From Opitutus sp. (GTDB lineage: Bacteria > Verrucomicrobiota > Verrucomicrobiia > Opitutales > Opitutaceae): DNA of 64,000 nt. Where the stretch lies: positions 620,001 through 684,000 of the forward strand of contig JANPZY010000001.1 of NCBI GenBank assembly GCA_024707325.1, read 5' to 3'. Below the pieces are notes generated by a model. That model saw only the letters and a program-made list of their open reading frames with translations. It searched no databases and was not told where the DNA came from. Shown piece by piece: positions 30,606 through 48,500 of the stretch (positions are counted from its first letter, which is position 1; each line of letters starts with the position of its first letter). A program made the position numbers and the translations under genes.

Positions 30606-30978
30606 CTGCGCCCGCCTGACGAAAGAGAAAGAGGAAGAGAAAGAAGAAAGAGCCCTTACAAAGACAGGCTCAGCGTGCGGCCCGATCTCCCATCTCCGAA
30701 CTCGGATCTCCCTCGCGTAGCGAGAGCCACTGCAGACGCGCCAAAGCAAGCGAACCTTGATTACGTCACGACGTATCTACCCACACCGTCGGAATAACTT
30801 GTGAACAAAATCGGGACATTTTCCTGAGGCCGGAGGCTTGCACATCCCTTGCGGTAAAAGCTTACTTCAGGCTTCCCCCGATGGTCGAAAGCTCTCCAGC
30901 CCTTTCGCCAACTCGGACGTCGCTTCGCGTCCGCCTACGCAGCCCGTCTTGGGATGTGCAATCGCTGCTCCGCTACTG

Positions 30979-33315
30979 ATGGAATACTACGCGCATACGG
31001 CCACGTTGGCCGACGGCTCGCCCAACCCTGATCCATCGAGCTGGCAACCGCTCTACACCGGCGATCCACAACACCCCGGTCACCTCGACGGCGTCGCGCG
31101 GCTCGCTGCGGAGTTCGCCTCTGCCTTCGACGCCGCGGACTGGGCCCGCCTCGCCGGCCTCTGGCACGACCTCGGAAAATATTCCGAAGCGTTTCGGCGT
31201 TACCTCGTGTCGGCCTCGGATCCAGATGCCGATGGAGAATCGCCGGGGCGTGGCCCAGACCACTCGACAGCCGGCGCTCAACACGCCGCAAAATACTTTG
31301 CACCACTCGGTCCGCTGCTGGGTTATTTGATCGCCGGGCATCACAGCGGGTTGCCCAACGGTCGCGATTCCTCCGCCACTTGCCTCGAAGCCCGCTTGGC
31401 CAAGGCCATCGAGAGCTACAGCGCTGCGCCCGCTGAAGTCACACGAGGCCTACAGCCGCCGCCCCGCCCTCCGGGGTATGCATTTACTTCCGGCTATGCG
31501 CTCGGTTTCTTCCTTCGCTTCGCTTTCTCCGCGCTCGTCGACGCCGATCGACGCGACACCGAGAGTTTCATGTCGCCCGAGCGGGCCGCCCAACGCGACG
31601 GCAGAAATCTCCCGACGATGCGCGCGCTGCGTGCTTGTCTGGACGCCTATCTCGCGCGCTTCGGCACGTCAACGACAGCAGTGCAGCGTGCCCGCGCCGA
31701 AGTGCTCGCTGCCTGCCTAGCCCGTGCGGGCGACGCGCCAGGATTGTTTTCCCTCACCGTGCCGACGGGTGGAGGCAAAACCCTGTCGTCTCTCGCCTTC
31801 GCTCTCGAGCATGCCATCGCCCACGATTTCGAACGGGTCATTTATGTGCTGCCGTTCACGAGCATCATCGAGCAAAACGCGGCCGTTTTCCGCGAGGTCT
31901 TTGCCGCATTCGGCAACGATGTCGTCATCGAGCATCACTCCAATCTCGACCCTGACGCTTCTCATCAATCTCCGACTGCACGCCTCGCCACCGAGGACTG
32001 GAATGCTCCGGTGATCGTCACGACGAGCGTGCAGTTTTTCGAATCGCTCCACGCCGCAAAGCCTTCCCGCTGCCGCAAACTCCACCGTCTCACACGCAGC
32101 GTCATCATCCTCGACGAGGCCCAAACACTGCCGGTCACGTTGCTACGTCCGTGCCTCGAAGCACTCCGCCAGCTTTCGGGGCGGAACGACCGCGGCAAAT
32201 CAAACTACCAGAGTTCCATCGTGCTGTGCACCGCCACGCAGCCCGCGATCGAATATCGCGACGATTTCAAATCAGGCCTGCGCGATGTGCGCGAAATCGT
32301 GCCCGATCGCAGATCACTCTTCGATGCGCTGCGGCGCGTGCGCGTAACATCGCTCGGCTCCGAGCCGCTGGCCGATTCCGAACTCGCGACTAAACTCGCG
32401 GCACACCCTCAGGTGCTCTGCATCGTCAACACCCGGCGTCACGCCGCTGAACTGTTTCAACGTCTCCCCACCGACAGCGCCAATCGCCACCTGAGCGCGC
32501 TCATGTGTCCGGCGCATCGCAGCGAAATCCTCGGCGACCCACGCGAGCCTGCGCCGGGCACGATTCGTCACGCGCTGCTCAACGGGCTGCCCTGTCGGGT
32601 CGTGACCACCCAGCTCATCGAGGCGGGGGTCGACGTGGATTTCCCGGTCGTCTATCGCGCACTCGCAGGCCTCGATTCGATCGCCCAAGCCGCGGGGCGC
32701 TGCAATCGCGAAGGACGACTCGTCGACGAAGCGGGTCGCTCACGTTTGGGAGATGTTTTCGTCTTCGCGCCCGAACAACCCATTCCCGCCGGATTCCTTC
32801 GCCGCACGGCGGAATCCGCAGCCGAAATCCTTCCGCGGCACATCGGCGATCCTCTCGCTCCGGCTGCCATCGAGGATTATTTCCGTCTGCACTACTGGCG
32901 ACACGAAGATCAGATCGACGCGAAGCGTATCCTCGAGTGTTTCCCTCGGGACAGCCCAGCACGATGGACGCCCGAGCATTTTTTCCTGCTGCAGTTCAAA
33001 GACTGCGCAGAACGTTTCCAATTCATCGAGTCCGCGTATGAGCCGGTGATCGTCCCATATGGCGATCGAGGACGTGAATTGGTAGATGCGCTCCGTGCGG
33101 CCTTCGATCCGGCCCAACAACGCACCTTAGCACGCCGGCTTCAACGCTACGTGGTGCAGATACCAGAGCCGGTAGCACACGCGTTTCTCGGTCGAGGCCT
33201 CGTGCGCCTCCACGACCGCTTCCTCGTGCTGGAGGACGACGCCGCGTATTCGCCGACCCTCGGCCTGCAGCTCGTTCATGACCGCCTCTACGATCCCGAA
33301 AAACTCACTGCTTAA
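30979..33315 (+). CDS. cas3: CRISPR-associated nuclease/helicase Cas3 (type I-C)
   Basis: 778 residues. An N-terminal HD nuclease domain: HPGHLDGVARLAAEF (His ~35), WHDLGKYSEAF (HD ~63-64), DHSTAGAQHA and GHHSG. The SF2 helicase follows with Walker A VPTGGGKTLS (~262), DEAQ at ~379, CTATQP and the C-terminal helicase motif TTQLIEAGVDVDFPVVYRAL...QAAGRCNREG. It is recruited by target-bound Cascade and degrades DNA 3'-5'. I chose ATG 30979; an open frame to 30838 has no conserved sequence. The 5' order cas3-cas5-cas8c-cas7 is standard for I-C. A separate RNA gene reads towards its 3' end, its terminator overlapping the cas3 stop codon. Confidence 0.95.
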   Translation: MEYYAHTATLADGSPNPDPSSWQPLYTGDPQHPGHLDGVARLAAEFASAFDAADWARLAGLWHDLGKYSEAFRRYLVSASDPDADGESPGRGPDHSTAGAQHAAKYFAPLGPLLGYLIAGHHSGLPNGRDSSATCLEARLAKAIESYSAAPAEVTRGLQPPPRPPGYAFTSGYALGFFLRFAFSALVDADRRDTESFMSPERAAQRDGRNLPTMRALRACLDAYLARFGTSTTAVQRARAEVLAACLARAGDAPGLFSLTVPTGGGKTLSSLAFALEHAIAHDFERVIYVLPFTSIIEQNAAVFREVFAAFGNDVVIEHHSNLDPDASHQSPTARLATEDWNAPVIVTTSVQFFESLHAAKPSRCRKLHRLTRSVIILDEAQTLPVTLLRPCLEALRQLSGRNDRGKSNYQSSIVLCTATQPAIEYRDDFKSGLRDVREIVPDRRSLFDALRRVRVTSLGSEPLADSELATKLAAHPQVLCIVNTRRHAAELFQRLPTDSANRHLSALMCPAHRSEILGDPREPAPGTIRHALLNGLPCRVVTTQLIEAGVDVDFPVVYRALAGLDSIAQAAGRCNREGRLVDEAGRSRLGDVFVFAPEQPIPAGFLRRTAESAAEILPRHIGDPLAPAAIEDYFRLHYWRHEDQIDAKRILECFPRDSPARWTPEHFFLLQFKDCAERFQFIESAYEPVIVPYGDRGRELVDALRAAFDPAQQRTLARRLQRYVVQIPEPVAHAFLGRGLVRLHDRFLVLEDDAAYSPTLGLQLVHDRLYDPEKLTA

Positions 33316-33343
33316 AAAAATCGGCGCGGCAAAGCCGCGCCGA
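33314..33343 (-). terminator. Intrinsic terminator of the crRNA-like RNA gene
   Basis: On the minus strand a 10-bp stem TCGGCGCGGC / GCCGCGCCGA with loop TTT is followed by seven T residues. The orientation of the T-run shows it serves the minus-strand RNA rather than cas3, although the hairpin also lies just after the cas3 stop. Confidence 0.88.
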
Positions 33344-33419
33344 AGTTGTTCATCATTAGAACAATGAATTCACATGTTTCAATCCGCACTGGCCTCCCAG
33401 CGACATTTTACTTGAATCC
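33314..33419 (-). ncRNA. Candidate Cas-regulating crRNA-like RNA (CreR-type): degenerate repeat plus 32-nt guide
   Basis: Read on the minus strand, 33404-33376 is a 29-nt degenerate CRISPR repeat: GT, then stem CGCTGG / CCAGTG with loop GAGG, then the tail CGGATTGAAAC. The array repeat is GT, stem CGCGCCC / GGGCGCG with loop CACGC, and the same 11-nt tail. So hairpin and 5' handle are kept while the stem sequence is replaced. A 32-nt AT-rich guide (33375-33344, starting ATGTGAATTC) follows, the length of an array spacer, then a terminator instead of a second repeat. A promoter lies at the right distance upstream. Cas5 should cut it into a Cascade guide. Its family match is to Cas-regulating RNAs; expression is inferred. 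Confidence 0.8.
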
Positions 33420-33425
33420 AGCCAC

Positions 33426-33454
33426 ATTATCTTTCATGTGTATTCTGTGTTCAA
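33426..33454 (-). promoter_or_regulatory. Promoter of the crRNA-like RNA
   Basis: On the minus strand TTGAAC (33454-33449) and GATAAT (33431-33426) are separated by exactly 17 bp. The predicted start near 33419 lies about 15 nt before the degenerate repeat. Confidence 0.7.
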
Positions 33455-33467
33455 GCAAAACCATCTT
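33433..33467 (+). promoter_or_regulatory. Predicted Cascade target site of the crRNA-like RNA (TTC PAM and partial protospacer)
   Basis: TTC at 33433-33435 is followed by ATGTGTATTCTGTGTTCAA. The guide starts ATGTGAATTCATTGTTCTA. Fifteen of 19 positions agree; mismatches are at 6, 11, 12 and 18, and there is no match beyond 19 above chance. The site covers the -10/-35 spacer and -35 of the RNA's own promoter and lies 108-142 bp upstream of cas5. Partial, PAM-proximal pairing would allow binding without efficient cleavage. Confidence 0.72.
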
Positions 33468-33501
33468 CCAACAACTGGCCCACCAAATTCACCGAGAACG
33501 C

Positions 33502-33532
33502 GGGGCGCATGAGTAGGAAAACCATGCGTCCC
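33502..33532 (+). promoter_or_regulatory. Hairpin upstream of cas5
   Basis: GGGGCGCATG pairs with CATGCGTCCC (10 bp, one G-U in RNA) around an 11-nt loop, 43 bp before the cas5 start. It could act in the cas mRNA leader or as a protein-binding site. No T-run follows. Confidence 0.45.
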
Positions 33533-33574
33533 GACTAACCCCACCTTCCCCTGATCTCCATTCGAAACTTAATC

Positions 33575-34291
33575 ATGCCTTACGGAATCCGCCTCCACAT
33601 CATTGGCGACTACGCGCTTTTCACCCGGCCCGAGATGAAAGCAGAGCGCGTCTCCTACGATGTCATCACCCCCTCCGCCGCGCGCGGCGTTCTCGAAGCC
33701 ATTTATTGGAAGCCGCAGATCCGCTGGGTCATCGACCGCATCCACGTGCTTCGACCGATCCAGTTTACCTCCGTCCGTCGCAACGAGGTCGCATCCAAGA
33801 TCCCGCTCGCACCGGCGCGGGCGGCAATGAAGGCCGGAGCTGGATCGCTCGGTCTCGCGATCGAGGATGATCGGCAACAGCGCGCCGCACTCCTGCTTCG
33901 CGACGTCGCCTACGTGATTGAAGCTCATTTCGACGTGCTCGATTTCCGTTTCGATCGCGGTGGTCCGGAGCTGCCGGCCAAGGATTGCGAAGGGAAACAC
34001 TTGGACATGTTCACCCGCCGCGCACGGGCCGGACAGTGTTTCCAACAACCCTACTTCGGCTGTCGCGAGTTCCCGGTGCGATTCAGCCTCTTGGAGCCGG
34101 GTGATCCACTGCCCGAGAGCACCCTCCCGGCCGCCGATCGCCAGCGTAATCTCGGTTGGATGCTTCACGATCTCGTCTTCGATCAAGACGCCAAGACTAA
34201 AGCAGTCCGTTCCGCTACTCCGCGTTTCTTCGCGGCTCAACTCCAAGACGGCGTCCTGCACGTGCCGCCCTTCTCTCAAACCCGCGCCTGA
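33575..34291 (+). CDS. cas5c: Cas5 (Cas5d/Cas5c) pre-crRNA endoribonuclease of type I-C Cascade
   Basis: 238 residues. The RAMP fold starts [48 protein letters not shown], the type I-C Cas5 signature. It continues with [15 protein letters not shown] and, near the C-terminus, [12 protein letters not shown] and [11 protein letters not shown]. In I-C, which lacks Cas6, Cas5 cuts the repeat hairpin at its 3' base, leaving the 11-nt 5' handle. Here that handle would be CGGATTGAAAC, conserved in both the array repeat and the lone degenerate repeat upstream. It is the first gene of the effector operon; cas8c starts 8 bp after its stop. Confidence 0.95.
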
Positions 34292-34298
34292 TTCGTCC

Positions 34299-36107
34299 AT
34301 GTCCACTTCATCCGAATCGTCTCCGCTTCGCGCGCTGGAACAGCTCTACGATCGCCTCGCTCGCGACGAGCGCTACGGCCTCGCTCTGCCCGGTTACAGC
34401 GCGCAGAAAATCTCCTTCTGTCTCGTTCTGAATCCCGACGGCTCGCTGGTCGGCGCTCCGCAGGACGAACGGGATTCATCCGGTAAGAAACTCCTTCCCC
34501 GCCAGCTTTCCGTCCCGGGACAATCGAAACCCCCCGGCCAAGGCCTCAACCCCTGCTTTCTCTGGGACAACAGCGCCTACCTCCTCGGCTACAAGGCCGA
34601 GGACGAAAAACCCGACCGCACGGTTAAAGCCTTCGCCGCTTTTCGCCAACGCCACCTCGACCTCGCAGCCAGTGAACCTGCGCTCGCTGCGGATGACGGC
34701 TTCGCTGCCGTCTGTGCGTTTCTGCGCGAGTGGAGACCCGAGCGGGCCCTTGAGTTCAAGGCTCAGCTCGATGATTTCGCCGCAACGGGATTCGGTGTAT
34801 TTCGGCTCGCAGGAGATCGTGGCTACATTCACGAGCGCCCGGCGATCCGCGCTTACTGGGATCGCATGCAGAATGCCGCCGACCCCGAGGCTCCGCGCGG
34901 ACAGTGCCTGATTAGCGGCGAGCCCGATCAGCCGCTCGCGCTCCTAGTCGAACCCGCAATCAAAGGAGTGAGCGGCGCCCAATCCAGCGGCGCGAAGATC
35001 GTCTCTTTCAACTGCGATGCCTTCACCTCCTATGGCAAGGACCAGGGGCTCAACTCGCCCATCTCGGTCTCCGCGGCCTTTCGCCACGCCACCGCGCTCA
35101 ACGCCTTGCTCGCCGGACCGCGTTCGCATCTTCACCGCCTGCAGATCGGAGATGCCACGACCATCTTCTGGACGGGAGAACCGACCACCACAGAGGGTTT
35201 TCTCGCCCAATTCCTGGACGGCCACACTCCCAACGACGAAGCGATCGCGCAGGACGAACCGCTGCGCGCGCGACTTCAGACATTTTTCGAGATTCTGAGC
35301 GACGGCGGCGGCCGATCGATCGAGGCGCTCGGTGATCGAGCAGACACGCCGTTCTACGTGCTCGGGCTTTCGCCCAATGCCGCGCGCCTCTCGGTCCGCT
35401 TCTGGTCAGTCGATACACTCGCCGGATTCGTTGCCCATCTCCGGGATCATTTTACTGCGCTCCGACTCGTGCGCCGCTTTCCGGATCAGGAGCCGGAATT
35501 TCCTGCACTCTGGCTGCTCCTTCGCCAGACCGCACGCGAATCGAAGGACATCCCCCCGCTCCTTGCAGGACCGCTGCTCCGTGCGGTCCTCACGGGAGCT
35601 CCTTATCCGGCAACACTCGCCTCTGCCGTCCTCAACCGCATCCGCGCCGACCACGACATCGGCTACCTGCGCTGCGCCCTCCTGAAAGCCTTTCTCAACC
35701 GCAACCACCGACTCGATCTGCCCATGAGCCTTGATCCTGCCCGACCTGAACCTGCCTACCGCCTCGGCCGGCTTTTCGCCGCCCTCGAAAAAACCCAGGA
35801 AGATGCGCTGCCCGGAATTAACGCCACGATTCGCGATCGCTTCTACAGTGCTGCGTCTGCCACGCCGCGAGCAGTTTTCCCGCGCTTGCTGCGCACTTAC
35901 CAACATCACCTGTCGAAAGCCGCCGCCGAGCGCGGCACAGGATTGAAGGTAAATCGCGAACGCCTCGTGCAGGAAATCTTCTCCGCCCTCGGCGACATGC
36001 CCGCCCACCTCGATTTGTCCGGACAAAGCCTCTTCGCGCTTGGCTACTATCACCAACGCCAGGCCTTCTACACCAAAGCGGAAGCCGAAGCGCTCCCTGC
36101 CGCCTAG
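34299..36107 (+). CDS. cas8c: Cas8c (Csd1) large subunit of type I-C Cascade
   Basis: 602 residues from ATG 34299 (MSTSSESSPLRALEQLYDRLARDERYGLALPGYS). Csd1 features: KISFCLVLNPDGSLVG, LLPRQLSVPGQSKPPGQGLNPCFLWDNSAYLLGY, CLISGEPDQPLALLVEPAIKGVSGAQSSGAKIVSFNCDAFTSYGKDQGLNSPIS, and FYVLGLSPNAARLSVRFW. It recognises the PAM (TTC in this subtype) and starts target unwinding; the I-C gene also yields a Cas11-like small subunit from an internal start. The C-terminal helical part from ~35700 could encode this. The open frame upstream of 34299 overlaps cas5 and is spurious. Confidence 0.93.
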   Translation: MSTSSESSPLRALEQLYDRLARDERYGLALPGYSAQKISFCLVLNPDGSLVGAPQDERDSSGKKLLPRQLSVPGQSKPPGQGLNPCFLWDNSAYLLGYKAEDEKPDRTVKAFAAFRQRHLDLAASEPALAADDGFAAVCAFLREWRPERALEFKAQLDDFAATGFGVFRLAGDRGYIHERPAIRAYWDRMQNAADPEAPRGQCLISGEPDQPLALLVEPAIKGVSGAQSSGAKIVSFNCDAFTSYGKDQGLNSPISVSAAFRHATALNALLAGPRSHLHRLQIGDATTIFWTGEPTTTEGFLAQFLDGHTPNDEAIAQDEPLRARLQTFFEILSDGGGRSIEALGDRADTPFYVLGLSPNAARLSVRFWSVDTLAGFVAHLRDHFTALRLVRRFPDQEPEFPALWLLLRQTARESKDIPPLLAGPLLRAVLTGAPYPATLASAVLNRIRADHDIGYLRCALLKAFLNRNHRLDLPMSLDPARPEPAYRLGRLFAALEKTQEDALPGINATIRDRFYSAASATPRAVFPRLLRTYQHHLSKAAAERGTGLKVNRERLVQEIFSALGDMPAHLDLSGQSLFALGYYHQRQAFYTKAEAEALPAA

Positions 36108-36164
36108 GCCTTTGCTCATCCCTTTTCTCAACATCCAACCCTCCGCTCTCAACTCCTCGCTCTC

Positions 36165-37019
36165 ATGAATAACCGCTACGACTTCGTCTTCCTCTTCGAC
36201 ACCCAGAACGGCAATCCGAACGGTGATCCCGACGCGGGCAATCTCCCGCGTGTTGATCCCGAAACCGGCCATGGCATCGTCACCGATGTCTGCCTGAAGC
36301 GCAAAATCCGCAACTTCGTCCAACTCACCAAGGCGGACGCCGCCGGTTACGACATCTACGTGCGCGAAAAAGCGATCCTCAATGATCAGCATCAGCGCGC
36401 CTACACCGCGAAAAACCTCGATCCGAAGAAAGCCAAGGCTCCCGACGTCGAAGCGGTTCGCGCTTGGATGTGCGAAAACTTCTTCGACATCCGCACGTTC
36501 GGAGCAGTCATGAGCACCGAGGTGAATTGTGGCCAGGTCCGCGGCCCCGTGCAGCTCACCTTCGCGCGCAGTGTTTCACCTGTCGTTTCGCTGGAGCATG
36601 CTGTCACCCGGTGTGCCGTCACCACCACACGCGAAGCGGAGAAGCAGGACGGCGACAACCGCACCATGGGACGCAAGTTCACGATCCCCTACGGGCTCTA
36701 TCTCGCGCATGGTTTCATCAATCCGTTCCTCGCCAAACAAACCGGCTTCTCCGAGGACGACCTCGCTACACTGAAGAGTGCCTTCGGTCAGATGTTCGAA
36801 CTTGATCGGTCGGCTGCCCGCGGACTCATGGGGGCCAAGCGACTCATCGCCTTCAAGCATGCCACTGCTCTCGGCAATGCGCCCGCGCACAAGCTCTTCG
36901 AAGCGGTCAAGGTCACCAAGAACGACGGCGTCGACGCCCCCCGGTCCTACTCCGATTACACGATCACGATCGACTCCGCCGCGATCCCGGACGGCGTCAC
37001 GGTTGAAGAGTGGGTTTGA
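36165..37019 (+). CDS. cas7c: Cas7 (Csd2) backbone subunit of type I-C Cascade
   Basis: 284 residues. It starts [52 protein letters not shown], the typical Csd2 start. It shows [30 protein letters not shown] and [33 protein letters not shown]. Several copies polymerise along the crRNA guide and hold the flipped-out base at every sixth position. It sits 57 bp after cas8c; a short CTCTCAA-type tract precedes its ATG. Confidence 0.95.
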
Positions 37020-37080
37020 GGCACAGTCCGCTCCCGGCCGCCCAACGGAACGTCTCGTCTCGTGGGCGGCCCAACCGCTC

Positions 37081-37314
37081 ATGCCCACCACCCTCACCAT
37101 CGGCGAATTCAGGTCCCGCATCTCCGAGGCGCTCGCACTCGTGCAGAAAGGTGAGTCCGTCATCGTCACCAACGGCCGAAACAAACGCCCTGTCGCGATT
37201 TTCGCACCACCACTTGTGCGTCGCCCACGTAAGCTCGGTCGTCTCGCCGGCAAGGCGCACGTCACCATCGAACCTAACTGGGAAATGACCGACGAGGAAC
37301 TCTGCGGCTCGTAA
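37081..37314 (+). CDS. Orphan Phd/YefM-type antitoxin within the cas operon
   Basis: 77 residues: TLTIGEFRSRISEALALVQKGESVIVTNGRNKRPVAIFAPPLVRR matches the Phd/YefM fold (DNA-binding N-terminal domain with the VT..G.PVAI strand). A short C-terminal tail follows (PNWEMTDEELCGS), which in true antitoxins binds the toxin. It lies 61 bp after cas7 and 61 bp before cas4, same strand. No toxin ORF is adjacent. It may be a transcriptional autoregulator of the operon, a trans-acting antitoxin, or a remnant. Such a gene is not a standard I-C component. Confidence 0.8.
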   Translation: MPTTLTIGEFRSRISEALALVQKGESVIVTNGRNKRPVAIFAPPLVRRPRKLGRLAGKAHVTIEPNWEMTDEELCGS

Positions 37315-37375
37315 GCGAGCCGAGCGTATTCGCTGCCTGCGATTCACTGGTAGAGCCGAAGCAACTCCTGTCCCC

Positions 37376-38005
37376 ATGCGCGCCGAACTCGATTCTCTTC
37401 CGATTTCGGCGCTCCAGCATTTCGCCTTCTGCCCGCGCCAGTGCGCGCTCATCCACATCGAGCGCGCCTGGGAGGAAAATCACCTCACCGCTCAAGGTCG
37501 CGTGCTCCACGAACGCGCCCACGATGGTTCGTCCGAGTCGCGGCGCGATCTGCGCATCGCTCGCTCGCTTCCGCTGCAATCCGTTGCTCTCGGCCTCCAC
37601 GGCGTCGCCGATATCGTCGAATTTCACCGTCAGCCCGACGGCTCGTGGCAACCGTTCCCCGTCGAATACAAGCGCGGCCGTCCCAAGGCCGAGCCCATCG
37701 ACGAAATCCAGCTCTGCGCGCAGGCCATCTGCCTCGAAGAAATGCTCCATACGACGATCCCGGCGGGCGCGATTTTCTACGGCGCCTCGCACCGACGCCA
37801 CGACGTGATTTTCGACGATTCACTTCGCGCCGACACTCACCGCGTCGCCCTCGCCACTCGCGCGATGATCGACGCCGGTCGCACGCCACCTCCGGAATTC
37901 AGTCCCAAATGCGCGTCGTGTTCGCTCCACGCGCTCTGCCAGCCCCAAGCCGCCACGCGCGGCGCGGCTGCCCATCTCGCCCGCATCCTCGCCGCCAGCG
38001 ACTGA
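37376..38005 (+). CDS. cas4: Cas4 adaptation nuclease
   Basis: 209 residues. The N-terminal Cys pair lies in FAFCPRQCALIHIERAW; the RecB-like nuclease core has LGLHGVADIVEF and PVEYKRGRPKAEPIDEIQLCAQAICLEE (D, E-x-K, Q). The C-terminal cluster is SPKCASCSLHALCQP. The four cysteines should hold a 4Fe-4S cluster. Cas4 trims prespacers and selects PAM orientation with Cas1-Cas2. Its stop is 5 bp before cas1. Confidence 0.93.
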   Translation: MRAELDSLPISALQHFAFCPRQCALIHIERAWEENHLTAQGRVLHERAHDGSSESRRDLRIARSLPLQSVALGLHGVADIVEFHRQPDGSWQPFPVEYKRGRPKAEPIDEIQLCAQAICLEEMLHTTIPAGAIFYGASHRRHDVIFDDSLRADTHRVALATRAMIDAGRTPPPEFSPKCASCSLHALCQPQAATRGAAAHLARILAASD

Positions 38006-38010
38006 ACCTC

Positions 38011-39045
38011 ATGCGACGCCTCCTCAATACTCTCTACGTGACCACGCAAGGATCGTATCTGCGCCGTGAAGGCGAAACCGTGGTCGTCGAAGTCGAGAAG
38101 CAAATCCGACTGCGCCTCCCTCTTCTGAACCTCGGCGGGATCGTCTGTTTCGGCAACGTGCTCTGCAGTCCGTTTCTGCTCGGAGCCTGCTCCGAGGCCG
38201 GTGTCGCCGTTTCTTTTCTGACGGAAAACGGTCGGCACCTCGCCGATGTCACTGGGCAACTCTCCGGCAACGTGCTCCTTCGTCGCGAGCAATACCGACG
38301 CGCTGACGATCCCCCCGCCAGCGCCGCGCTCGCCCGCGCTTTTATCGCCGGCAAACTCGCCAACACTCGCCACGTTCTCCGCCGCGCAGCCCGCGAACTT
38401 CCGCCTGGCGACAATGCTGCCGGAGCAATCGATCAGGCGGCCGACGCGCTTGCCCACCGTCTGCGCAGCCTCGCCTCCGCCGACACTGTTGATACGATTC
38501 GTGGCATCGAGGGCGAAGCCGCCGCGCTGTATTTCGAAGTGTTTCCTCAGCTCGTGACCGCGCAGCGCGAACATTTCCCGTTTGGGGAACGAAACCGGCG
38601 CCCACCGCGCGATCCGCTCAACTGCCTCCTCTCGTATCTCTACACATTGCTACGTTTCGACGCCGCCGGCGCCCTGCAAAGTCACGGCCTCGATCCCGCG
38701 GTCGGCTTCCTGCATCGCGATCGTCCCGGACGGCCAAGCCTGGCGCTCGATTTGATCGAGGAGTTTCGCGTGCCTCTCGCCGATCGTCTCGCCCTCACGC
38801 TCATCAACCGACAGCAAATCCAGCCGCAGCATTTTCAAACGACAGAATCGGGAGCGGTCCTTCTGACTGAAGCAGGACGCAAGGAAGTGCTCACTGCCTG
38901 GCAAAAACGAAAGCAGGACGAAATCGCGCACCCATTTCTCGATGAAAAACTCCCGATCGGTCTACTCCTCCATGCGCAGTCCTTGCTGCTTGCGCGCCAC
39001 CTTCGCGGCGACCTCGACGCCTATCCGCCCTTCGAGTGGCGCTGA
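38011..39045 (+). CDS. cas1: Cas1 integrase (type I-C)
   Basis: 344 residues. The N-terminal beta domain is [47 protein letters not shown]. The catalytic domain shows [16 protein letters not shown] (Glu), [53 protein letters not shown] (His and the D/E metal ligands) and LINRQQI. It integrates new spacers at the leader-repeat junction, here 500 bp downstream. The start is ATG 38011, with a 5-bp gap from cas4. Confidence 0.95.
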
Positions 39046-39068
39046 TACTTGGAAGACTATCTCGCGCC

Positions 39069-39359
39069 ATGATGATTCTCGTCAGCTATGACGTCGCCAC
39101 GTCGACACCCGCTGGGCAACGACGCCTGCGACGCGTTGCCCGAGCATGTCTGAACCACGGCCAACGCGTGCAGAACTCCGTGTTTGAGTGTCTGCTCGCC
39201 AACGATCAGTGGATCGCATTTCGTGCCGAGTTGTTGAAGATCGCAGACCTCGAGCAAGACAGCCTGCGGTTCTACTTCCTCGGCAACGAATGGCAGCGAC
39301 GCGTCGAGCACCACGGCGCCAAACCCAGCGTCGATCCTGAAGGTCCCCTCGTAATCTAG
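39069..39359 (+). CDS. cas2: Cas2 (type I-C)
   Basis: 96 residues from ATG 39069 ([43 protein letters not shown]). The ferredoxin-like fold has the SYDV strand with Asp ~8. ESL-like [10 protein letters not shown] closes the core. It forms the Cas1-Cas2 integration complex. An in-frame ATG at 39036 would overlap cas1 and is less likely. It ends directly at the leader. Confidence 0.94.
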
Positions 39360-39541
39360 CGTGCGCGGACCCGCGCCGAACAGAGTGACAGGAGCAGGTC
39401 CGCGAACTTCGTATCTTGCTCTTAGTGACAGAGCAAGACGCCGCATCGGCGTGGCGCACGCACAGGCATGGGACGAGAACTCATCCGTTCGCGATTTGTG
39501 TTCTTTGACATACGATCCATCACTCACTTGGAGTATGCGGA
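39360..39541 (+). promoter_or_regulatory. CRISPR leader
   Basis: The 182 bp between cas2 and the first repeat. It holds two hairpins, CGCGGACC / GGTCCGCG (39364-39371, 39397-39404) and CTTGCTC / GAGCAAG (39415-39437). AGTGACAG occurs twice at exactly 40-bp distance (39384 and 39424). A consensus -35-like TTGACA is at 39505-39510, although no convincing -10 follows at standard spacing. The leader side is confirmed by repeat degeneration at the far end of the array. Confidence 0.8.
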
Positions 39542-42500
39542 GTCGCGCCCCACGCGGGCGCGCGGATTGAAACCGGCGGAGATGCTCACCGTATCACTGG
39601 TGCGCGTCGCGCCCCACGCGGGCGCGCGGATTGAAACCTTTTATTTCTCTTCTCCACCTATTTTCTCTTGTCGCGCCCCACGCGGGCGCGCGGATTGAAA
39701 CCTCATCAAAACCTGACCACCATGCCCATCTACCAGTGTCGCGCCCCACGCGGGCGCGCGGATTGAAACTGGCGCGCACACGCACTCCGTCACCATTGGA
39801 GCGGGTCGCGCCCCACGCGGGCGCGCGGATTGAAACCGACCGATTTCGTCGCAGGCTCGATAAATCGACTGTCGCGCCCCACGCGGGCGCGCGGATTGAA
39901 ACCATCCTGATAGAGGTAAAACGTCGTCGGAACCTTGTCGCGCCCCACGCGGGCGCGCGGATTGAAACACGATTACGGAACCGATACTTGGGGCAACGCG
40001 CGTCGCGCCCCACGCGGGCGCGCGGATTGAAACTCGAGCCGCGACACCCACTCGCGCGTGACGCCCAGGTCGCGCCCCACGCGGGCGCGCGGATTGAAAC
40101 ACGAGCGTCTTCGAGATGGTCACTCTCGACAGCGAGGGTCGCGCCCCACGCGGGCGCGCGGATTGAAACCTGATCGAGCCCGCGATGAGCTTCGAGATGA
40201 AGTGTCGCGCCCCACGCGGGCGCGCGGATTGAAACGCCAGGCGATCGCGCAGCGGGACAAGGAACGTGGTCGCGCCCCACGCGGGCGCGCGGATTGAAAC
40301 TCGGTGCCGCTGGCCGATCTCGAGGAATTCGCCGCGTCGCGCCCCACGCGGGCGCGCGGATTGAAACCTCGTCCTCGCCGCTCTCGCGGTCGCGGGCCTG
40401 TGTCGCGCCCCACGCGGGCGCGCGGATTGAAACGACGGTAAGAAAAGCCATGTAGTTCTTTACGCTGTCGCGCCCCACGCGGGCGCGCGGATTGAAACGG
40501 GAAAGAGTATGTGACGATCACCGCCAGCGGTGGTCGCGCCCCACGCGGGCGCGCGGATTGAAACACGGTCGACGTGGGCGTCGGCGCCGGCGGCTACACG
40601 GTCGCGCCCCACGCGGGGCGCGCGGATTGAAACAAATGACGCCGAGCCCAAAAAGTCCAGCCGGTGTCGCGCCCCACGCGGGCGCGCGGATTGAAACTCC
40701 AGAGCGCGCGTCGCTCGATCGCCGAGGAGCGTCGCGCCCCACGCGGGCGCGCGGATTGAAACCAGTTTTTGTGCGTCACGCTCGCCGTCACGACGGGTCG
40801 CGCCCCACGCGGGCGCGCGGATTGAAACTCCGGCGGCAGATTCAGCGAGCGGTTGGTCTCGGTCGCGCCCCACGCGGGCGCGCGGATTGAAACTTCGCGT
40901 CCCACAGCCGGCGAATCTGCTCCATGGTCGCGCCCCACGCGGGCGCGCGGATTGAAACGTCGACGAGCGCGGCACGCTTGCCGGGCGTCGGTCGCGCCCC
41001 ACGCGGGCGCGCGGATTGAAACTCCTCGAGCGCGGAGCGCAGCCAGTCGGCCCGGTCGCGCCCCACGCGGGCGCGCGGATTGAAACGCTCGCGTCGGCGC
41101 TCTCGGCGAGCGCGATGATGGTCGCGCCCCACGCGGGCGCGCGGATTGAAACGCGAGCCCGGCGGAGAACGCGGCGTCGTCTTCGGTCGCGCCCCACGCG
41201 GGCGCGCGGATTGAAACGTCGGAGCGGATGCCGACGAAACAGGCGCACAACTGTCGCGCCCCACGCGGGCGCGCGGATTGAAACACTCATCGCGTTTACG
41301 GCATGTTTTCCGCGTGCGTCGCGCCCCACGCGGGCGCGCGGATTGAAACGTGGAATTGCCCGTGACGGAAGCGCCGCCAACGCGTCGCGCCCCACGCGGG
41401 CGCGCGGATTGAAACATGGTGGGCGCCGCGGTGCGGCGCAGTTGAGAGGTCGCGCCCCACGCGGGGCGCGCGGATTGAAACGTCGACGAGCGCGGCACGC
41501 TTGCCGGGCGTCGGTCGCGCCCCACGCGGGCGCGCGGATTGAAACTCCTCGAGCGCGGAGCGCAGCCAGTCGGCCCGGTCGCGCCCCACGCGGGCGCGCG
41601 GATTGAAACGCTCGCGTCGGCGCTCTCGGCGAGCGCGATGATGGTCGCGCCCCACGCGGGCGCGCGGATTGAAACGCGAGCCCGGCGGAGAACGCGGCGT
41701 CGTCTTCGGTCGCGCCCCACGCGGGCGCGCGGATTGAAACGTCGGAGCGGATGCCGACGAAACAGGCGCACAACTGTCGCGCCCCACGCGGGCGCGCGGA
41801 TTGAAACACTCATCGCGTTTACGGCATGTTTTCCGCGTGCGTCGCGCCCCACGCGGGCGCGCGGATTGAAACGTGGAATTGCCCGTGACGGAAGCGCCGC
41901 CAACGCGTCGCGCCCCACGCGGGCGCGCGGATTGAAACCTGCTTCAGCCAATACATGATCTCGCCGCCCTCGGTCGCGCCCCACGCGGGCGCGCGGATTG
42001 AAACACGTCGCCGTAGAACAGCGTCACGAGAAGCGGCGTCGCGCCCCACGCGGGCGCGCGGATTGAAACTAAAAAGCCCCGCCGCCGGAGCGGCGGAGCT
42101 GTGGTCGCGCCCCACGCGGGCGCGCGGATTGAAACCGCGGCCCTGCAAGCCACCAGCTCGGGGATTGCGTCGCGCCCCACGCGGGCGCGCGGATTGAAAC
42201 ACCGCCCAGGGCAACCACGCCGCGGCAGAACGCGGTCGCGCCCCACGCGGGCGCGCGGATTGAAACTTCGATGCCTTTGTCGATTGCGTGAGGTATCCGG
42301 TCGCGCCCCACGCGGGCGCGCGGATTGAAACATGTCCATCAGCGTCCCCCGCCACGCTCGGTTCAGCGTCGCGCCCCACGCGGGCGCGCGGATTGAAACT
42401 ACAGAAATGCCGTGACGACGAAGCCGAAGAGGAGGTCGCGCCCCACGCGGGCGCGCGGATTGAAACATCAGGCCCGCTCTGGATTGGAGTCGCCTCCACA

Positions 42501-45500
42501 GTCGCGCCCCACGCGGGCGCGCGGATTGAAACCGCCGCGGCGTGCACAAGGTGATCCTGCCCGATCAGTCGCGCCCCACGCGGGCGCGCGGATTGAAACG
42601 ATGAGATGGTAGAGCCAAAGTCCCTTGCGCTGATGTCGCGCCCCACGCGGGCGCGCGGATTGAAACGCCCGCGACCTCGTAGCGGCCGGTCCAGCCGGGC
42701 GTCGCGCCCCACGCGGGCGCGCGGATTGAAACCCCCACTCGGCGAAATATTTGGCCTGTTGCGCAGGGTCGCGCCCCACGCGGGCGCGCGGATTGAAACC
42801 CATTTCCCTCACTCGACTTTCCCGGTCGCGTGGTCGCGCCCCACGCGGGCGCGCGGATTGAAACTTTCATGACAGTTGACGGCTGGAGGCCGCGTTCAGT
42901 CGCGCCCCACGCGGCGCGCGCGGATTGAAACACGGCGGCAACGCTCGCCGCTGACACGGAGGAACCGTCGCGCCCCACGCGGGCGCGCGGATTGAAACCA
43001 TAAAAAACGGACACTTCGGCCGGCGACATGCCGTCGCGCCCCACGCGGGCGCGCGGATTGAAACACTTTCAGGGTGAAATCATGTTTCACGCCGCCGAGT
43101 CGCGCCCCACGCGGGCGCGCGGATTGAAACCCGACCTGCAATCCGCCGGTAACAAAATCGTTGCCGTCGCGCCCCACGCGGGCGCGCGGATTGAAACTTC
43201 GCTTTCCGCGACCCATGCGAACCGGTCGCCGGTCGCGCCCCACGCGGGCGCGCGGATTGAAACACGATGAAAGAAATTGGGCCGAGGCCGTGAAAGGTCG
43301 CGCCCCACGCGGGCGCGCGGATTGAAACGGCCACTGTGGTTTGGACATCTCGCCGAAGCACGGTCGCGCCCCACGCGGGCGCGCGGATTGAAACTCAGCT
43401 ACGACCTGATCGCCTCGTGCGAGTATCGCCGTCGCGCCCCACGCGGGCGCGCGGATTGAAACGCGTTTCGGCCGTAGGTGGCGTGCCACTGGGCAAGCGT
43501 CGCGCCCCACGCGGGCGCGCGGATTGAAACGCGTAGCGTTGCTGGATCGCGACGATCTCGGCGTCGGTCGCGCCCCACGCGGGCGCGCGGATTGAAACCT
43601 TCATGTTCTCTTTGATGTCGCGCTCCGACATGTCGCGCCCCACGCGGGCGCGCGGATTGAAACAGGCGCATTTGACGAGGCAGCGTGAGACGGTCCCGCG
43701 TCGCGCCCCACGCGGGCGCGCGGATTGAAACTGCATCTCGACGATGCGGCGCGTGTAGGCCACGTGTCGCGCCCCACGCGGGCGCGCGGATTGAAACCGC
43801 GAGTAGAGCTTCTGCGCGTTCTCGATGATGGTCGCGCCCCACGCGGGCGCGCGGATTGAAACGTTGAACGCCACGCGGCCCGCCTGCTCGGCGAGGTCGC
43901 GCCCCACGCGGGCGCGCGGATTGAAACATTGACGGAGCGCCCAAAAGAGAAGCCGAATGACGGTCGCGCCCCACGCGGGCGCGCGGATTGAAACCTCGTC
44001 TGTGCATTCCTTCAAATCGACGCCGAGCTGTCGCGCCCCACGCGGGCGCGCGGATTGAAACCGCAGGCGTCAACGGCTCCGGCGGCTCAAACGTGTCGCG
44101 CCCCACGCGGGCGCGCGGATTGAAACGTCCGGTGCTGAGTCCACGTTCACGTGGGCCAAGGTCGCGCCCCACGCGGGCGCGCGGATTGAAACCCGGGCGT
44201 GTGCGCGTGGATAAAAGCCGGCATCGGTCGCGCCCCACGCGGGCGCGCGGATTGAAACACGATCTACGGCAAAAAAGGGGGCGGCAAAAGCGTCGCGCCC
44301 CACGCGGGCGCGCGGATTGAAACCTCCGCGCGACCCGGCCCCTTGAAGCCGACGCCTGGTCGCGCCCCACGCGGGCGCGCGGATTGAAACGTGGCGCACC
44401 TTGAAGTTCGCGAACCAGTCGTCGATGTCGCGCCCCACGCGGGCGCGCGGATTGAAACATCAGCAGCTTGCCCCGTAGTTTTTTGGCGTTCGTCGCGCCC
44501 CACGCGGGCGCGCGGATTGAAACAGGGCCAGCGCCACAGGGCAGAATCCGATGGTGGTCGCGCCCCACGCGGGCGCGCGGATTGAAACCCTTATTATCAC
44601 AGCCGATAGCCCCGCCGCCGACATGTCGCGCCCCACGCGGGCGCGCGGATTGAAACCCATGCGGCACGCTCAGCGGTTTCAATGGTATGGTCGCGCCCCA
44701 CGCGGGCGCGCGGATTGAAACGTCCGCCATGTCCGGTTTTCGACGTCCTTAAGTCCGTCGCGCCCCACGCGGGCGCGCGGATTGAAACAATCCGCTACTA
44801 TGGGGGCGGTCCGGCTGACTCGTCGCGCCCCACGCGGGCGCGCGGATTGAAACAACCGGTATGCCATTAGTTCCCCTTATATTCCGTCGCGCCCCACGCG
44901 GGCGCGCGGATTGAAACTGGGTCATGTCAGTAGGTGGGTTTGGGGATCGAGGTCGCGCCCCACGCGGGCGCGCGGATTGAAACGTCTCGTTCACCACATT
45001 TACAGAGCCATCATTCGCGTCGCGCCCCACGCGGGCGCGCGGATTGAAACGCCAAGAACGCCGACAACTCCGGCAGCTTAAGCGCGTCGCGCCCCACGCG
45101 GGCGCGCGGATTGAAACACCTTATGAAATTCACGGCTAAACATATCAACGTCGCGCCCCACGCGGGCGCGCGGATTGAAACCCCTTATATTCCGTTAAAA
45201 ATGCGATTTCCCGAAAGTCGCGCCCCACGCGGGCGCGCGGATTGAAACATAGCGAAAAAGCTTGACTTTTCCCTCTATCTCGTCGCGCCCCACGCGGGCG
45301 CGCGGATTGAAACTGGTTTGGCTTTCGGCACAGGCTTTTCCCATGCAGTCGCGCCCCACGCGGGCGCGCGGATTGAAACCACGTCCGCGAACTCGAACCA
45401 CTGCGCGAAAGCCGTCGCGCCCCACGCGGGCGCGCGGATTGAAACGCGACCCCAACGGCCATCCCTGCGGCCTCTTTGCGTCGCGCCCCACGCGGGCGCG

Positions 45501-48500
45501 CGGATTGAAACGACGCCCGACCTGCGCCCGCGACGTGCGCGGGGCGTCGCGCCCCACGCGGGCGCGCGGATTGAAACAACCTCAGCTCAACTCCTGAAAC
45601 CATGAAACCCGCGTCGCGCCCCACGCGGGCGCGCGGATTGAAACCAATGCCCGCGTCCTCCTGCTTGAACCGTTGGGTCGCGCCCCCACGCGGGCGCGCG
45701 GATTGAAACTCGGCGTAGCGACACCGCACCGGCTGCGGCACGCGTGTCGCGCCCCACGCGGGCGCGCGGATTGAAACGTCATCAAGCTCTGCGAAGCCCG
45801 CCCCCTTTAACGTCGCGCCCCACGCGGGCGCGCGGATTGAAACTGTTTCGCCGTGATCTTCTGACCGAGGGGGCGAAGTGTCGCGCCCCACGCGGGCGCG
45901 CGGATTGAAACGAGACTTCGCGGAAGTGCGCAAAAACCCAGTAGTGTCGCGCCCCACGCGGGCGCGCGGATTGAAACCGCGCCAAAATCCGAGAGCGCAT
46001 CGCCGAACGAAGTCGCGCCCCACGCGGGCGCGCGGATTGAAACCTCGCGTAGAAGCGCGATAAACGCCAAACCAGTCGGTCGCGCCCCACGCGGGCGCGC
46101 GGATTGAAACCGCAGTCTTCATAGCGGGGTGGCAGGCGTTTTACGTCGCGCCCCACGCGGGCGCGCGGATTGAAACCGGAAGGTCGAACCAGTCGCCCGT
46201 GCCAACGCTCGGTCGCGCCCCACGCGGGCGCGCGGATTGAAACAGGTGTGAGGAGTTCCATGGTCAGATGAAGTCGGGTCGCGCCCCACGCGGGCGCGCG
46301 GATTGAAACATGAAGACGGCGCATGGGAAGTCTCGAACTTCGAGTCGCGCCCCACGCGGGCGCGCGGATTGAAACGTTCAACTGGAGCTCGCACAACTGC
46401 GCGTTTGTCGGTCGCGCCCCACGCGGGCGCGCGGATTGAAACCACGATGTGCGGAAACTCGTGGTCAGGTATCTCTGTCGCGCCCCACGCGGGCGCGCGG
46501 ATTGAAACGGATGCACCATCGAGCAGGCCAAGCGTCACCTCGGTCGCGCCCCACGCGGGCGCGCGGATTGAAACGTTTTCATGCTTTGACGAAGCGTATT
46601 GTTAACGGTCGCGCCCCACGCGGGCGCGCGGATTGAAACGCCGAAATCCGCGGCACGATCGAAGCCGTGCGCGTCGCGCCCCACGCGGGCGCGCGGATTG
46701 AAACAAGCGCCGCTGCTTCTGATCCATGCCCGCAATCTGTCGCGCCCCACGCGGGCGCGCGGATTGAAACATCCTCGAGGACGATCCGGTCGCGATCCAT
46801 CTCGTCGCGCCCCACGCGGGCGCGCGGATTGAAACTGCTTCGGCGGCTCCGATGGCTCGCCGGCGCCCGTCGCGCCCCACGCGGGCGCGCGGATTGAAAC
46901 TCTCCCTTGAGCAACTTCTCGAGCTCGCTCGCCGGTCGCGCCCCACGCGGGCGCGCGGATTGAAACGTCGGCGTCGTGCCGGTCCCGACGGCCGCGTGCG
47001 AAGTCGCGCCCCACGCGGGCGCGCGGATTGAAACAACAGGCCGCCCCAAATGCTGGAGCTTTGTTGCTGTCGCGCCCCACGCGGGCGCGCGGATTGAAAC
47101 TGAATCGCGAGAATATCGGTCACGAGTTCTTCGCGTCGCGCCCCACGCGGGCGCGCGGATTGAAACAGGTAGATGCGTTGAATCGGCAAATCCACCGGAA
47201 GGTCGCGCCCCACGCGGGCGCGCGGATTGAAACGTCATAGCTGGGAAATTGTGGCGGCGCGGGGCGTCGCGCCCCACGCGGGCGCGCGGATTGAAACCCA
47301 GACATGAATCACCCAGGCGATGAGGTGCCTTACGGTCGCGCCCCACGCGGGCGCGCGGATTGAAACGCTTTAACCTCTGAATCACCATGGAAGAAACCAA
47401 CGTCGCGCCCCACGCGGGCGCGCGGATTGAAACTTCCAGCATGGGCACAAGAGGGCCGCGCATCTTGTCGCGCCCCACGCGGGCGCGCGGATTGAAACCT
47501 CGTTAACAAAGCTCAGGATTTTGACCGCATGGCGTCGCGCCCCACGCGGGCGCGCGGATTGAAACCTCACGCCAAACGCCGGACGCGTCGCGCCGCATCT
47601 GTCGCGCCCCACGCGGGCGCGCGGATTGAAACCAAAACCGTTGACTGGAACAATCCCCCCGACATTGTCGCGCCCCACGCGGGCGCGCGGATTGAAACAA
47701 CGGCAACCCAAACGCTTGTTGCTGGAAGCCGTCGCGCCCCACGCGGGCGCGCGGATTGAAACACGGACACCAAATCAGCGACGTGACCGGACTCGCGGTC
47801 GCGCCCCACGCGGGCGCGCGGATTGAAACTAGACGATTTGGATGCACTCGCGCCGGAAGAGCGTCGCGCCCCACGCGGGCGCGCGGATTGAAACCGAGGC
47901 GACATCGGTTTCTCGTCACCGACCTGCGGTCGCGCCCCACGCGGGCGCGCGGATTGAAACCTCCATCGCCGCTTTGGAGTGTCGCCGGTTCGACGTCGCG
48001 CCCCACGCGGGCGCGCGGATTGAAACCATGTGCCGCATGAATACGCCGACAAGCACAAGCGTCGCGCCCCACGCGGGCGCGCGGATTGAAACGGTTCGGT
48101 AGGCGACATCACCAATCTTCCGGTGGGTCGCGCCCCACGCGGGCGCGCGGATTGAAACGCCGACATGACGAAAGTCGGCAAGGCCGTGAACGTCGCGCCC
48201 CACGCGGGCGCGCGGATTGAAACACGTCGGCGCGCTCACGCTCGCGGGCGAAGAACCGTCGCGCCCCACGCGGGCGCGCGGATTGAAACAGGCCATCGCT
48301 GACGGCAACAACCCCGCCGACGGTCGCGCCCCACGCGGGCGCGCGGATTGAAACGAGCACGATCACCTCAATGGGAGGTGTGTTGTCGTCGCGCCCCACG
48401 CGGGCGCGCGGATTGAAACTCACGGTAGGATTGAACATCGAGACAGAGGCGCGTCGCGCCCCACGCGGGCGCGCGGATTGAAACCGCGATGGGTGCCAGC

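What the first reader, a model, noticed from the sequence alone, without database searches (positions are those of the whole stretch)
33433..33467. The guide partly matches a TTC-flanked site in its own promoter, with mismatches on the six-nucleotide flip register
Seen: TTC at 33433 followed by ATGTGTATTCTGTGTTCAA, against guide ATGTGAATTCATTGTTCTA: 15 of 19 match, mismatches at 6, 11, 12, 18, and no pairing beyond. Positions 6, 12 and 18 are those flipped out in type I R-loops. The match covers the -35 and spacer of the RNA's own promoter and lies just upstream of the cas5 operon. Known: CreR guides use a PAM plus limited PAM-proximal pairing, so Cascade binds without cutting. Inferred: a feedback loop in which spare Cascade represses the cas operon and the RNA, released when array crRNAs or anti-CRISPRs consume Cascade.
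Basis: partly seen in the sequence, partly recalled or inferred. Interest (0 to 1): 0.95.

Follow-up and report, generated by a model that had tools for sequence, protein, structure and literature searches.

The report
Guide RNA aimed at own promoter
Beside its CRISPR genes this bacterium carries a predicted small guide RNA that matches a site in the guide's own predicted promoter, so the CRISPR complex likely uses it to hold down that RNA, and perhaps the neighbouring defence genes, without cutting; guide-and-site pairs with other sequences sit in 23 other loci of this CRISPR type.

Summary
In a complete type I-C CRISPR locus, a one-repeat mini-CRISPR lies on the minus strand between cas3 and cas5c. 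Its guide matches a TTC-flanked site at 33433-33454: 15 of 19, mismatches at 6, 11, 12 and 18. The PAM-plus-seed word occurs once in the 4.04-Mb assembly. The decisive evidence is comparative. Of 122 distinct loci with a Cas5c relative, 41 carry a solo repeat end and 24 (window included) pair it with a TTC site significantly, with different sequences each time. Over these 24, guide and target match at 1-5, 7-11 and mostly 13-17, but in only 17 of 72 cells at 6/12/18 and near chance beyond 18. TTC beats every other trinucleotide, 21 loci against at most 7. The site covers the -35 and spacer of the guide RNA's own predicted promoter; the same scan finds no promoter for cas5c in the gap. Best reading: CreR-like, Cascade-guided repression of the RNA's own promoter, possibly also of cas5c-cas8c-cas7. 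Relatives show cas-promoter and toxin-like-gene versions. Binding, repression and titration are untested. New variant of a known kind.

The parts
33426..33454 (-). predicted promoter of the solo guide RNA: -35 TTGAAC (33454-33449), 17-nt spacer, -10 GATAAT (33431-33426)
   Evidence: the only promoter-like site in 33200-33700 (9 of 12; listed twice with shifted -35), 0.2 expected
33433..33454 (+). PAM TTC (33433-33435) and partial protospacer (33436-33454), paired mainly over guide nt 1-17; overlaps spacer and -35 of the minus-strand promoter
   Evidence: seed word unique in the assembly; chance expectation 9e-7 in the gap
33376..33404 (-). solo degenerate CRISPR repeat GTCGCTGGGAGGCCAGTGCGGATTGAAAC; keeps the last 11 nt of the array repeat (CGGATTGAAAC) and a different but intact hairpin (CGCUGG/CCAGUG)
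   Evidence: 33320-33420 folds with z = -4.7, 0 of 200 shuffles as stable
33344..33375 (-). guide segment, 32 nt: ATGTGAATTCATTGTTCTAATGATGAACAACT
33314..33343 (-). intrinsic terminator (10-bp stem, 3-nt loop, 7 U) in the place of a second repeat; the U tract overlaps the cas3 stop codon
30979..33315 (+). cas3 (open frame from 30838; Met at 30979)
   Evidence: HD domain above cut-off, helicase core below cut-off
33575..34291 (+). cas5c, first gene downstream of the site
   Evidence: TIGR01876, 188.5 bits
34299..36107 (+). cas8c
   Evidence: TIGR01863, 495.5 bits
36165..37019 (+). cas7 (Csd2)
   Evidence: TIGR02589, 389 bits
37376..38005 (+). cas4
   Evidence: TIGR00372
38011..39045 (+). cas1c
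   Evidence: TIGR03640, 499.8 bits
39072..39359 (+). cas2
   Evidence: TIGR01573
39542..50274 (+). CRISPR array, 32-nt repeat GTCGCGCCCCACGCGGGCGCGCGGATTGAAAC; source of competing crRNAs in the titration model
   Evidence: 162 repeat ends, 160 spacers read, 152 distinct

Best explanation
The window holds a solo repeat-guide unit whose guide matches a TTC-flanked site in its own predicted promoter at 15 of 19 positions, and type I-C Cascade carrying this predicted RNA likely binds that site and would repress the RNA's own transcription, and possibly the adjacent cas5c-cas8c-cas7 genes, without cutting. Shown by sequence: promoter-like hexamers, repeat with the intact 11-nt end, guide, terminator-like hairpin, TTC, the pairing pattern, and the same pattern in 23 other loci. 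Inferred: the RNA is transcribed from the predicted promoter; Cas5c trims it at the repeat hairpin; the terminator hairpin stands in for the second repeat; Cascade opens about 17 nt at the site, too little for Cas3 to act; the bound complex occludes the -35 and spacer. Inferred with less confidence: it also lowers cas5c-cas8c-cas7 transcription, as a block to read-through from cas3 or by covering a weak unrecognised promoter, and the loop relaxes when array crRNAs or inhibitors occupy Cascade.
For: Guide and site match uniquely and beyond chance. 24 of 122 distinct loci have a solo-repeat guide with a significant TTC site (25 of 42 solo handles at p <= 0.01, 300 guide shuffles each; about 0.4 expected). 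Position profile over the 24: nt 1-5 118/120, nt 6 5/24, nt 7-11 115/120, nt 12 7/24, nt 13-17 95/120, nt 18 5/24, nt 19-26 53/192; 6/12/18 against the neighbours 5, 7, 11, 13, 17: 17/72 versus 110/120. PAM control, in a joint search with its own thresholds: TTC 21 loci, best other trinucleotide 7, mean of 63 others 1.4. PAM-blind: the best 18-nt match of 16 guides, picked before targets were scored, is TTC-flanked in 12. The module fills a gap: 21 of 22 measured loci with a significant pair have 134 nt or more between cas3 and cas5 (the exception, L014, has its module upstream of cas3), versus 40 nt or less in 58 of 93 without. Promoter overlap; stable RNA fold. I-C interference in Xanthomonas needs at least 27 bp of match (PMC8406640, passages), and I-C Cascade over a -10 represses in Neisseria (PMC10865793, passages).
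Against: No expression or binding data. No + strand promoter was recognised in the gap, so the link to cas5c is by position only. No near relative with this very guide was found; the closest Cas5c relative in genome contigs, L008 (80%), has cas3 and cas5 about 22 nt apart and no solo repeat end in the stretch scanned. The window's site is mismatched at 11, which matches in 22 of 24 pairs, and has T, not the usual A, at 6. In the predicted fold of the untrimmed RNA the leader pairs with guide nt 4-11. 17 of 42 solo handles had no significant TTC site; some look like coding chance matches, others like real mini-CRISPRs without a found target (L055, L087, L111) or with a weak one (L002, p 0.14; L061, p 0.04). 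A second set of 60 more distant loci gave 17 handles and none significant. In 13 of the 24 loci the gene under the site is toxin-like, so the window could be a relic of such a module.
Confidence: 0.72

Rival explanations
1. A full CreR: the main purpose is repression of the cas5c-cas8c-cas7 operon, with self-repression a by-product of shared DNA.
For: Site 142 nt upstream of cas5c, before the first effector gene; in L014 the site covers the -10 of the cas3 promoter (TTGACA-16-TATTAT) and in L110 the -35 of the cas5 promoter (TTGCTA-17-TATACT).
Against: No + strand promoter recognised around the site in the window; cas3 lies upstream of the site and is not covered by it.
Confidence: 0.45
2. A self-limiting guide RNA only: the loop keeps this RNA low and does not touch cas expression.
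For: Only the RNA's own promoter is recognised under the site. L045, L050 and L059 also have the site some 24-34 nt upstream of the repeat with nothing in between.
Against: A guide RNA whose sole target is its own promoter has no obvious benefit; other loci aim at cas or toxin-like genes.
Confidence: 0.25
3. A toxin-antitoxin (CreTA or CrePA-like) module or its remnant: the guide keeps a toxin silent while Cascade is intact.
For: Related modules carry a small hydrophobic peptide ORF between site and repeat (L092, L099, L022, L035, L038, L074, L083, L085; also L002) or an RHH antitoxin plus PIN toxin pair (L003, L009, L010, L013, L089). The window has a 9-codon ORF in a strong hairpin between site and cas5c (33501-33538) and an orphan Phd-like gene in the cas operon.
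Against: Only some 28 nt separate site and repeat in the window, and no ORF over 26 codons starts between site and cas5c on the + strand; the 33456-33574 stretch is single copy in the genome.
Confidence: 0.15
4. A decayed self-derived spacer or chance match without function.
For: Mini-CRISPRs may arise from spacers (inference); the pairing is partial.
Against: Chance 9e-7 in the gap; differences pile up at the register positions that do not pair, in 24 loci; hairpin, 11-nt end and terminator are intact.
Confidence: 0.04
5. A DNA inverted repeat used as a protein operator (in the window guide and site lie on opposite strands).
For: Opposite orientation in the window.
Against: In 13 of the 24 loci guide and site are on the same strand, which a palindromic operator does not explain; TTC and repeat end are tied to the match.
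Confidence: 0.03

Closest known systems
CreR (cas-regulating RNAs; autorepression in types I-B, I-E and V-A according to PMC13131331, passage; called widespread in type I and V-A in PMC12737573, passages)
   Same: crRNA-like RNA from a mini-CRISPR beside cas genes; PAM; partial match to a promoter in the cas locus; predicted repression by the cognate effector
   Different: type I-C; one repeat followed by a terminator; the recognised promoter under the site is the RNA's own; cas repression not shown
CreTA and CrePA (CRISPR-regulated toxin modules; PMC12737573 section 3.3 read; PMC8501985 and PMC9458426 seen as search listings and term searches that found none of my terms)
   Same: solo-repeat guide with partial match to a promoter inside the cas locus; relatives of the window's unit have toxin-like genes under the site
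   Different: no toxin gene found under the site in the window; CreP is described there as a KilA-N protein, the relatives here have PIN or small hydrophobic candidates
Standalone-repeat regulatory RNAs surveyed by Shmakov et al. 2023, NAR gkad495 (not held; seen only as a reference; content recalled)
   Same: as recalled, a survey of mini-arrays with partial matches to cas or cargo promoters, mostly type I
   Different: I could not check whether these I-C loci are among them
Racr RNA anti-CRISPRs (PMC10651486, passages)
   Same: solitary repeat units, a type I-C example exists
   Different: viral, act by repeat mimicry; here the unit is inside a bacterial cas locus and has a guide with a target

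Membership tests
CreR | crRNA-like unit with a CRISPR-type repeat within the cas locus | tested here: met
   repeat 33376-33404 between cas3 and cas5c
CreR | guide with limited, PAM-anchored match to a promoter in the cas locus | tested here: met
   TTC plus 15 of 19 on the RNA's own predicted promoter
CreR | the promoter under the site drives cas genes | tested here: inconclusive
   no + strand promoter recognised; position only. Predicted promoters of that kind lie under the sites of L014 and L110
CreR | cas autorepression relieved by competing crRNAs or anti-CRISPRs | not testable with these tools
   needs expression data
CreTA / CrePA | toxin gene whose promoter is the guide's target | tested here: not met
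   no ORF over 26 codons starts between site and cas5c on the + strand and only some 28 nt lie between site and repeat; a very short toxic RNA such as 33501-33538 is not excluded
Racr | viral solitary repeat without a regulatory target | tested here: not met
   cas locus of a bacterial genome and a unique target
Type I-C CRISPR-Cas locus | cas3, cas5c, cas8c, cas7, cas4, cas1c, cas2 and array | tested here: met
   the Cas3 helicase-core hit is below its curated cut-off, the HD hit above

The most novel reading that the evidence does not exclude
Type I-C Cascade is widely used as an RNA-programmed repressor, and its natural regulatory sites obey a rule beyond PAM plus seed: TTC, three paired blocks of five (1-5, 7-11, 13-17), then nothing, with an A on the displaced strand at the unpaired sixth base that is read from the DNA and not by the guide. 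The window is a stripped-down member, a guide RNA that governs its own promoter.
Probability: 0.4. Interest if true: 0.78.

Novelty: new variant of a known kind. Interest (0 to 1): 0.62.

Why it matters
If true it extends guide-RNA control inside CRISPR loci to type I-C. The 24 natural guide-site pairs record in evolution which positions of a type I guide must pair, and give a clean register of five paired, one free, ending near 17. The conserved A at the free sixth position suggests that Cascade or its displaced strand reads a DNA base there, which is directly testable. The relatives also show one architecture aimed at cas promoters, at the guide's own promoter, and at toxin-like genes.

Tried and rejected
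A cas5c promoter in the gap was sought twice on the + strand and none was recognised. A CreT-like toxin RNA in the gap: only a 9-codon ORF in a hairpin, in a single-copy stretch, left open. Rfam over 30800-40000: no family hit for the solo unit; the 7 hits up to E = 1 are array repeats below the gathering score. tRNA search of the window and of L088: none. Wider replication with 60 more distant loci: 17 handles, 0 significant, so neither the profile nor the A at position 6 could be retested there. In 21 plasmid and viral loci: 3 handles, 2 significant (L207, L213), both with A at position 6. A handle-free search of the loci without a significant pair gave, with TTC, four loci (L008, L039, L069, L107): coding or array-like sequence in three, L107 not resolved; with other PAMs in nine chosen loci it gave one convincing case, L076 with TTT, and a duplicated stretch in L063 not tied to a repeat end. 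DNA palindrome as protein operator: rejected because guide and site are on the same strand in 13 of 24 loci. The A at position 6 as a general spacer property: not so for this array, A at position 6 in 12% of 152 distinct spacers. Paper searches for I-C CreR, I-C CreTA or the sixth-position base in I-C listed no paper whose title or abstract start names them; most subscription papers are not held, and I did not open most of the listed ones.

Full report
What is there. The window lies in a 4.04-Mb assembly (window = G000:C3:620001-684000). A genome marked 'same order' (G056) has the same cas5 region as a record titled Opitutales bacterium (L024 = L003), so the host is likely in the order Opitutales. 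The window holds a complete type I-C locus: cas3, cas5c, cas8c, cas7, a small Phd-like gene, cas4, cas1c, cas2 and an array of 162 repeat ends. Between cas3 (stop at 33315) and cas5c (ATG at 33575) are 259 nt. On the minus strand of this gap stand, in order, a sigma-70-like promoter (33454-33426), one degenerate repeat (33404-33376), a 32-nt guide (33375-33344) and a strong terminator-like hairpin with U tract (33343-33314). The solo repeat keeps the last 11 nt of the array repeat letter for letter and has a different sequence in the stem that still pairs (CGCUGG with CCAGUG). The stretch 33320-33420 folds far better than its shuffles (z = -4.7). That Cas5c cuts so as to leave an 11-nt 5' handle in type I-C is recalled.

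The observation. TTC at 33433 and the next 19 bases match the guide at 15 of 19 positions, with mismatches at 6, 11, 12 and 18. The site overlaps the spacer and the -35 of the guide's own predicted promoter. The word TTC-ATGTG-N-ATTC occurs once in the assembly. Markov-resampled gaps never reached the observed score in 100,000 trials.

Comparative test. Cas5c relatives were collected from genome contigs (best 80 of at least 577) and from whole genomes: 7 of 57 relatives, 62 of 384 of the class (30 loci taken), 86 of 387 of the phylum (30 loci taken). That gave 145 loci, 122 distinct. A repeat end outside arrays occurs 42 times in 41 loci. For each, every TTC site from about 2550 nt upstream to 300 nt downstream of the cas5 start was scored against the guide on positions 1-18 without 6, 12, 18, and against 300 shuffles of the guide. 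25 of 42 reach p <= 0.01, in 24 loci. The guides differ from locus to locus and the sites differ with them. This is covariation of guide and site. Three controls agree. In a joint search (handle GAAA[CT], at least 13 of 17, first 4 matched) the other 63 trinucleotides give at most 7 loci, against 21 for TTC (two of the 21, L039 and L062, look like coding chance). Without any PAM, 12 of 16 guides have a TTC-flanked best match in their locus. In 60 distant loci with 17 handle words none is significant.

Register. Over the 24 pairs the matches per position are: 1-5 118/120; 6 5/24; 7-11 115/120; 12 7/24; 13-17 95/120; 18 5/24; 19-26 53/192. Positions 6, 12, 18 and those beyond 18 were not used in scoring, so their values are free of selection; the others are somewhat raised by it. 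In L009 the only differences in the first 21 are at 6, 12 and 18. This is the register of flipped bases known for Class 1 effectors, with seed 1-5 and 7-8 (PMC11127173, passages). The pairing stops near 17. I-C interference in Xanthomonas needed at least 27 bp (PMC8406640, passages), and in a type I-B system matches of 26 nt or less repress without cutting (PMC10551041, passages). Binding without cutting is therefore the expected outcome, but it is inferred.

An unexplained base. The sixth base of the site, on the strand that carries TTC, is A in 22 of 24 pairs (background A 0.316, P about 1e-9) and in both later pairs, while guide base 6 is close to even. After thinning to sites less than 50% alike it is 11 of 12. 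Spacers of the window's array have A there in 12%. The window's own site has T. Related modules share ancestry, so the P value is too small, but the pattern crosses dissimilar sequences.

What the sites control. Of the 24, read from ORFs and promoter scans: (a) on predicted cas promoters: L014, over the -10 of the cas3 promoter; L110, over the -35 of the cas5 promoter; (b) right upstream of the solo repeat with nothing between: the window, L045, L050, L059 (24-34 nt by the script's measure); (c) upstream of a small hydrophobic peptide ORF: L092, L099, L022, L035, L038 (the least hydrophobic), L074, L083, L085, and, outside the 24, L002, whose site is not significant (10 of 15, p 0.14); (d) between an RHH-like and a PIN-like gene: L003, L009, L010, L013, L089 (Pfam PIN in the three tested, FitA-like RHH in the one tested). 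L071 has a small gene of unknown kind under the site, as does L061, whose site is marginal (p 0.04). L025, L034, L088 and L096 I did not resolve. The modules sit in a gap that most loci without a pair lack.

Mechanism. Most likely Cascade carrying this RNA covers its own promoter and so sets its own level. Whether the cas5c operon is also held down is open: the promoter scans recognised none there, but a bound Cascade 142 nt upstream could block read-through from cas3.

Known or new. The principle is known as CreR, CreTA and CrePA, and a 2025 review calls CreR widespread in type I. A survey by Shmakov et al. 2023 exists (reference seen, text not held); as I recall it, it covers many type I loci. 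New here as far as my searches reach: the type I-C set with its pairing register, the one-repeat-plus-terminator form aimed at its own promoter, and the A at the unpaired sixth base. I file it as a new variant of a known kind. It is CreR-like, and CreR membership is not established because the cas-promoter feature is inconclusive in the window.

Noticed in passing
24 loci; L207, L213: The unpaired sixth base of the regulatory site is A in 24 of 26 pairs while the guide base is close to even; unexplained.
   Followed up: partly
L002, L092, L099 (minus strand, between site and solo repeat): A 62-70 aa hydrophobic peptide ORF, alignable across the three (32% and 25% identity to that of L002), sits between the site and the mini-CRISPR; in L092 and L099 its frame runs into the repeat. 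Candidate CRISPR-controlled toxin.
   Followed up: partly
L022, L035, L038, L074, L083, L085 (+ strand, between site and solo repeat): Short hydrophobic peptide ORFs in the same position, in loci of Desulfobulbaceae and Pseudomonadota, including Azotobacter vinelandii CA.
   Followed up: partly
L003, L009, L010, L013, L089, about 10-830 nt upstream of cas5: RHH-like and PIN-like gene pair with the guide's site between the two genes, upstream of the PIN gene: a possible CRISPR-controlled protein toxin module of type I-C.
   Followed up: partly
L014 at -2310; L110 at -121 (relative to cas5): Mini-CRISPRs whose sites lie on the -10 of the predicted cas3 promoter and the -35 of the predicted cas5 promoter: the clearest CreR candidates in this type I-C set.
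   Followed up: partly
37081-37314 +: Orphan Phd/YefM-like gene between cas7 and cas4 (Pfam E 6e-4, below cut-off; no NCBIfam hit).
   Followed up: partly
33501-33538 +: Hairpin with 11-bp arms holding a 9-codon ORF in the cas5c upstream region; the stretch is single copy in the genome.
   Followed up: partly
L088, between site and solo repeat: A stretch with a long closing stem and a tRNA T-arm-like motif, seen by eye; ARAGORN finds no tRNA.
   Followed up: partly
40941-41240 and 41464-41763: Exact 300-nt repeat 523 nt apart inside the CRISPR array: a block of spacers is duplicated.
   Followed up: no
39542-50274: Spacer base composition has a three-base rhythm (A low at positions 3, 6 and 9), as if protospacers keep codon phase relative to the PAM.
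   Followed up: no
L076, about -163 relative to cas5: Inquilinus limosus solo repeat with end GATCGAAAC and a 15 of 15 site flanked by TTT instead of TTC.
   Followed up: no
L207: A contig of a viral collection carries a Cas5c relative with a mini-CRISPR and a TTC site.
   Followed up: no
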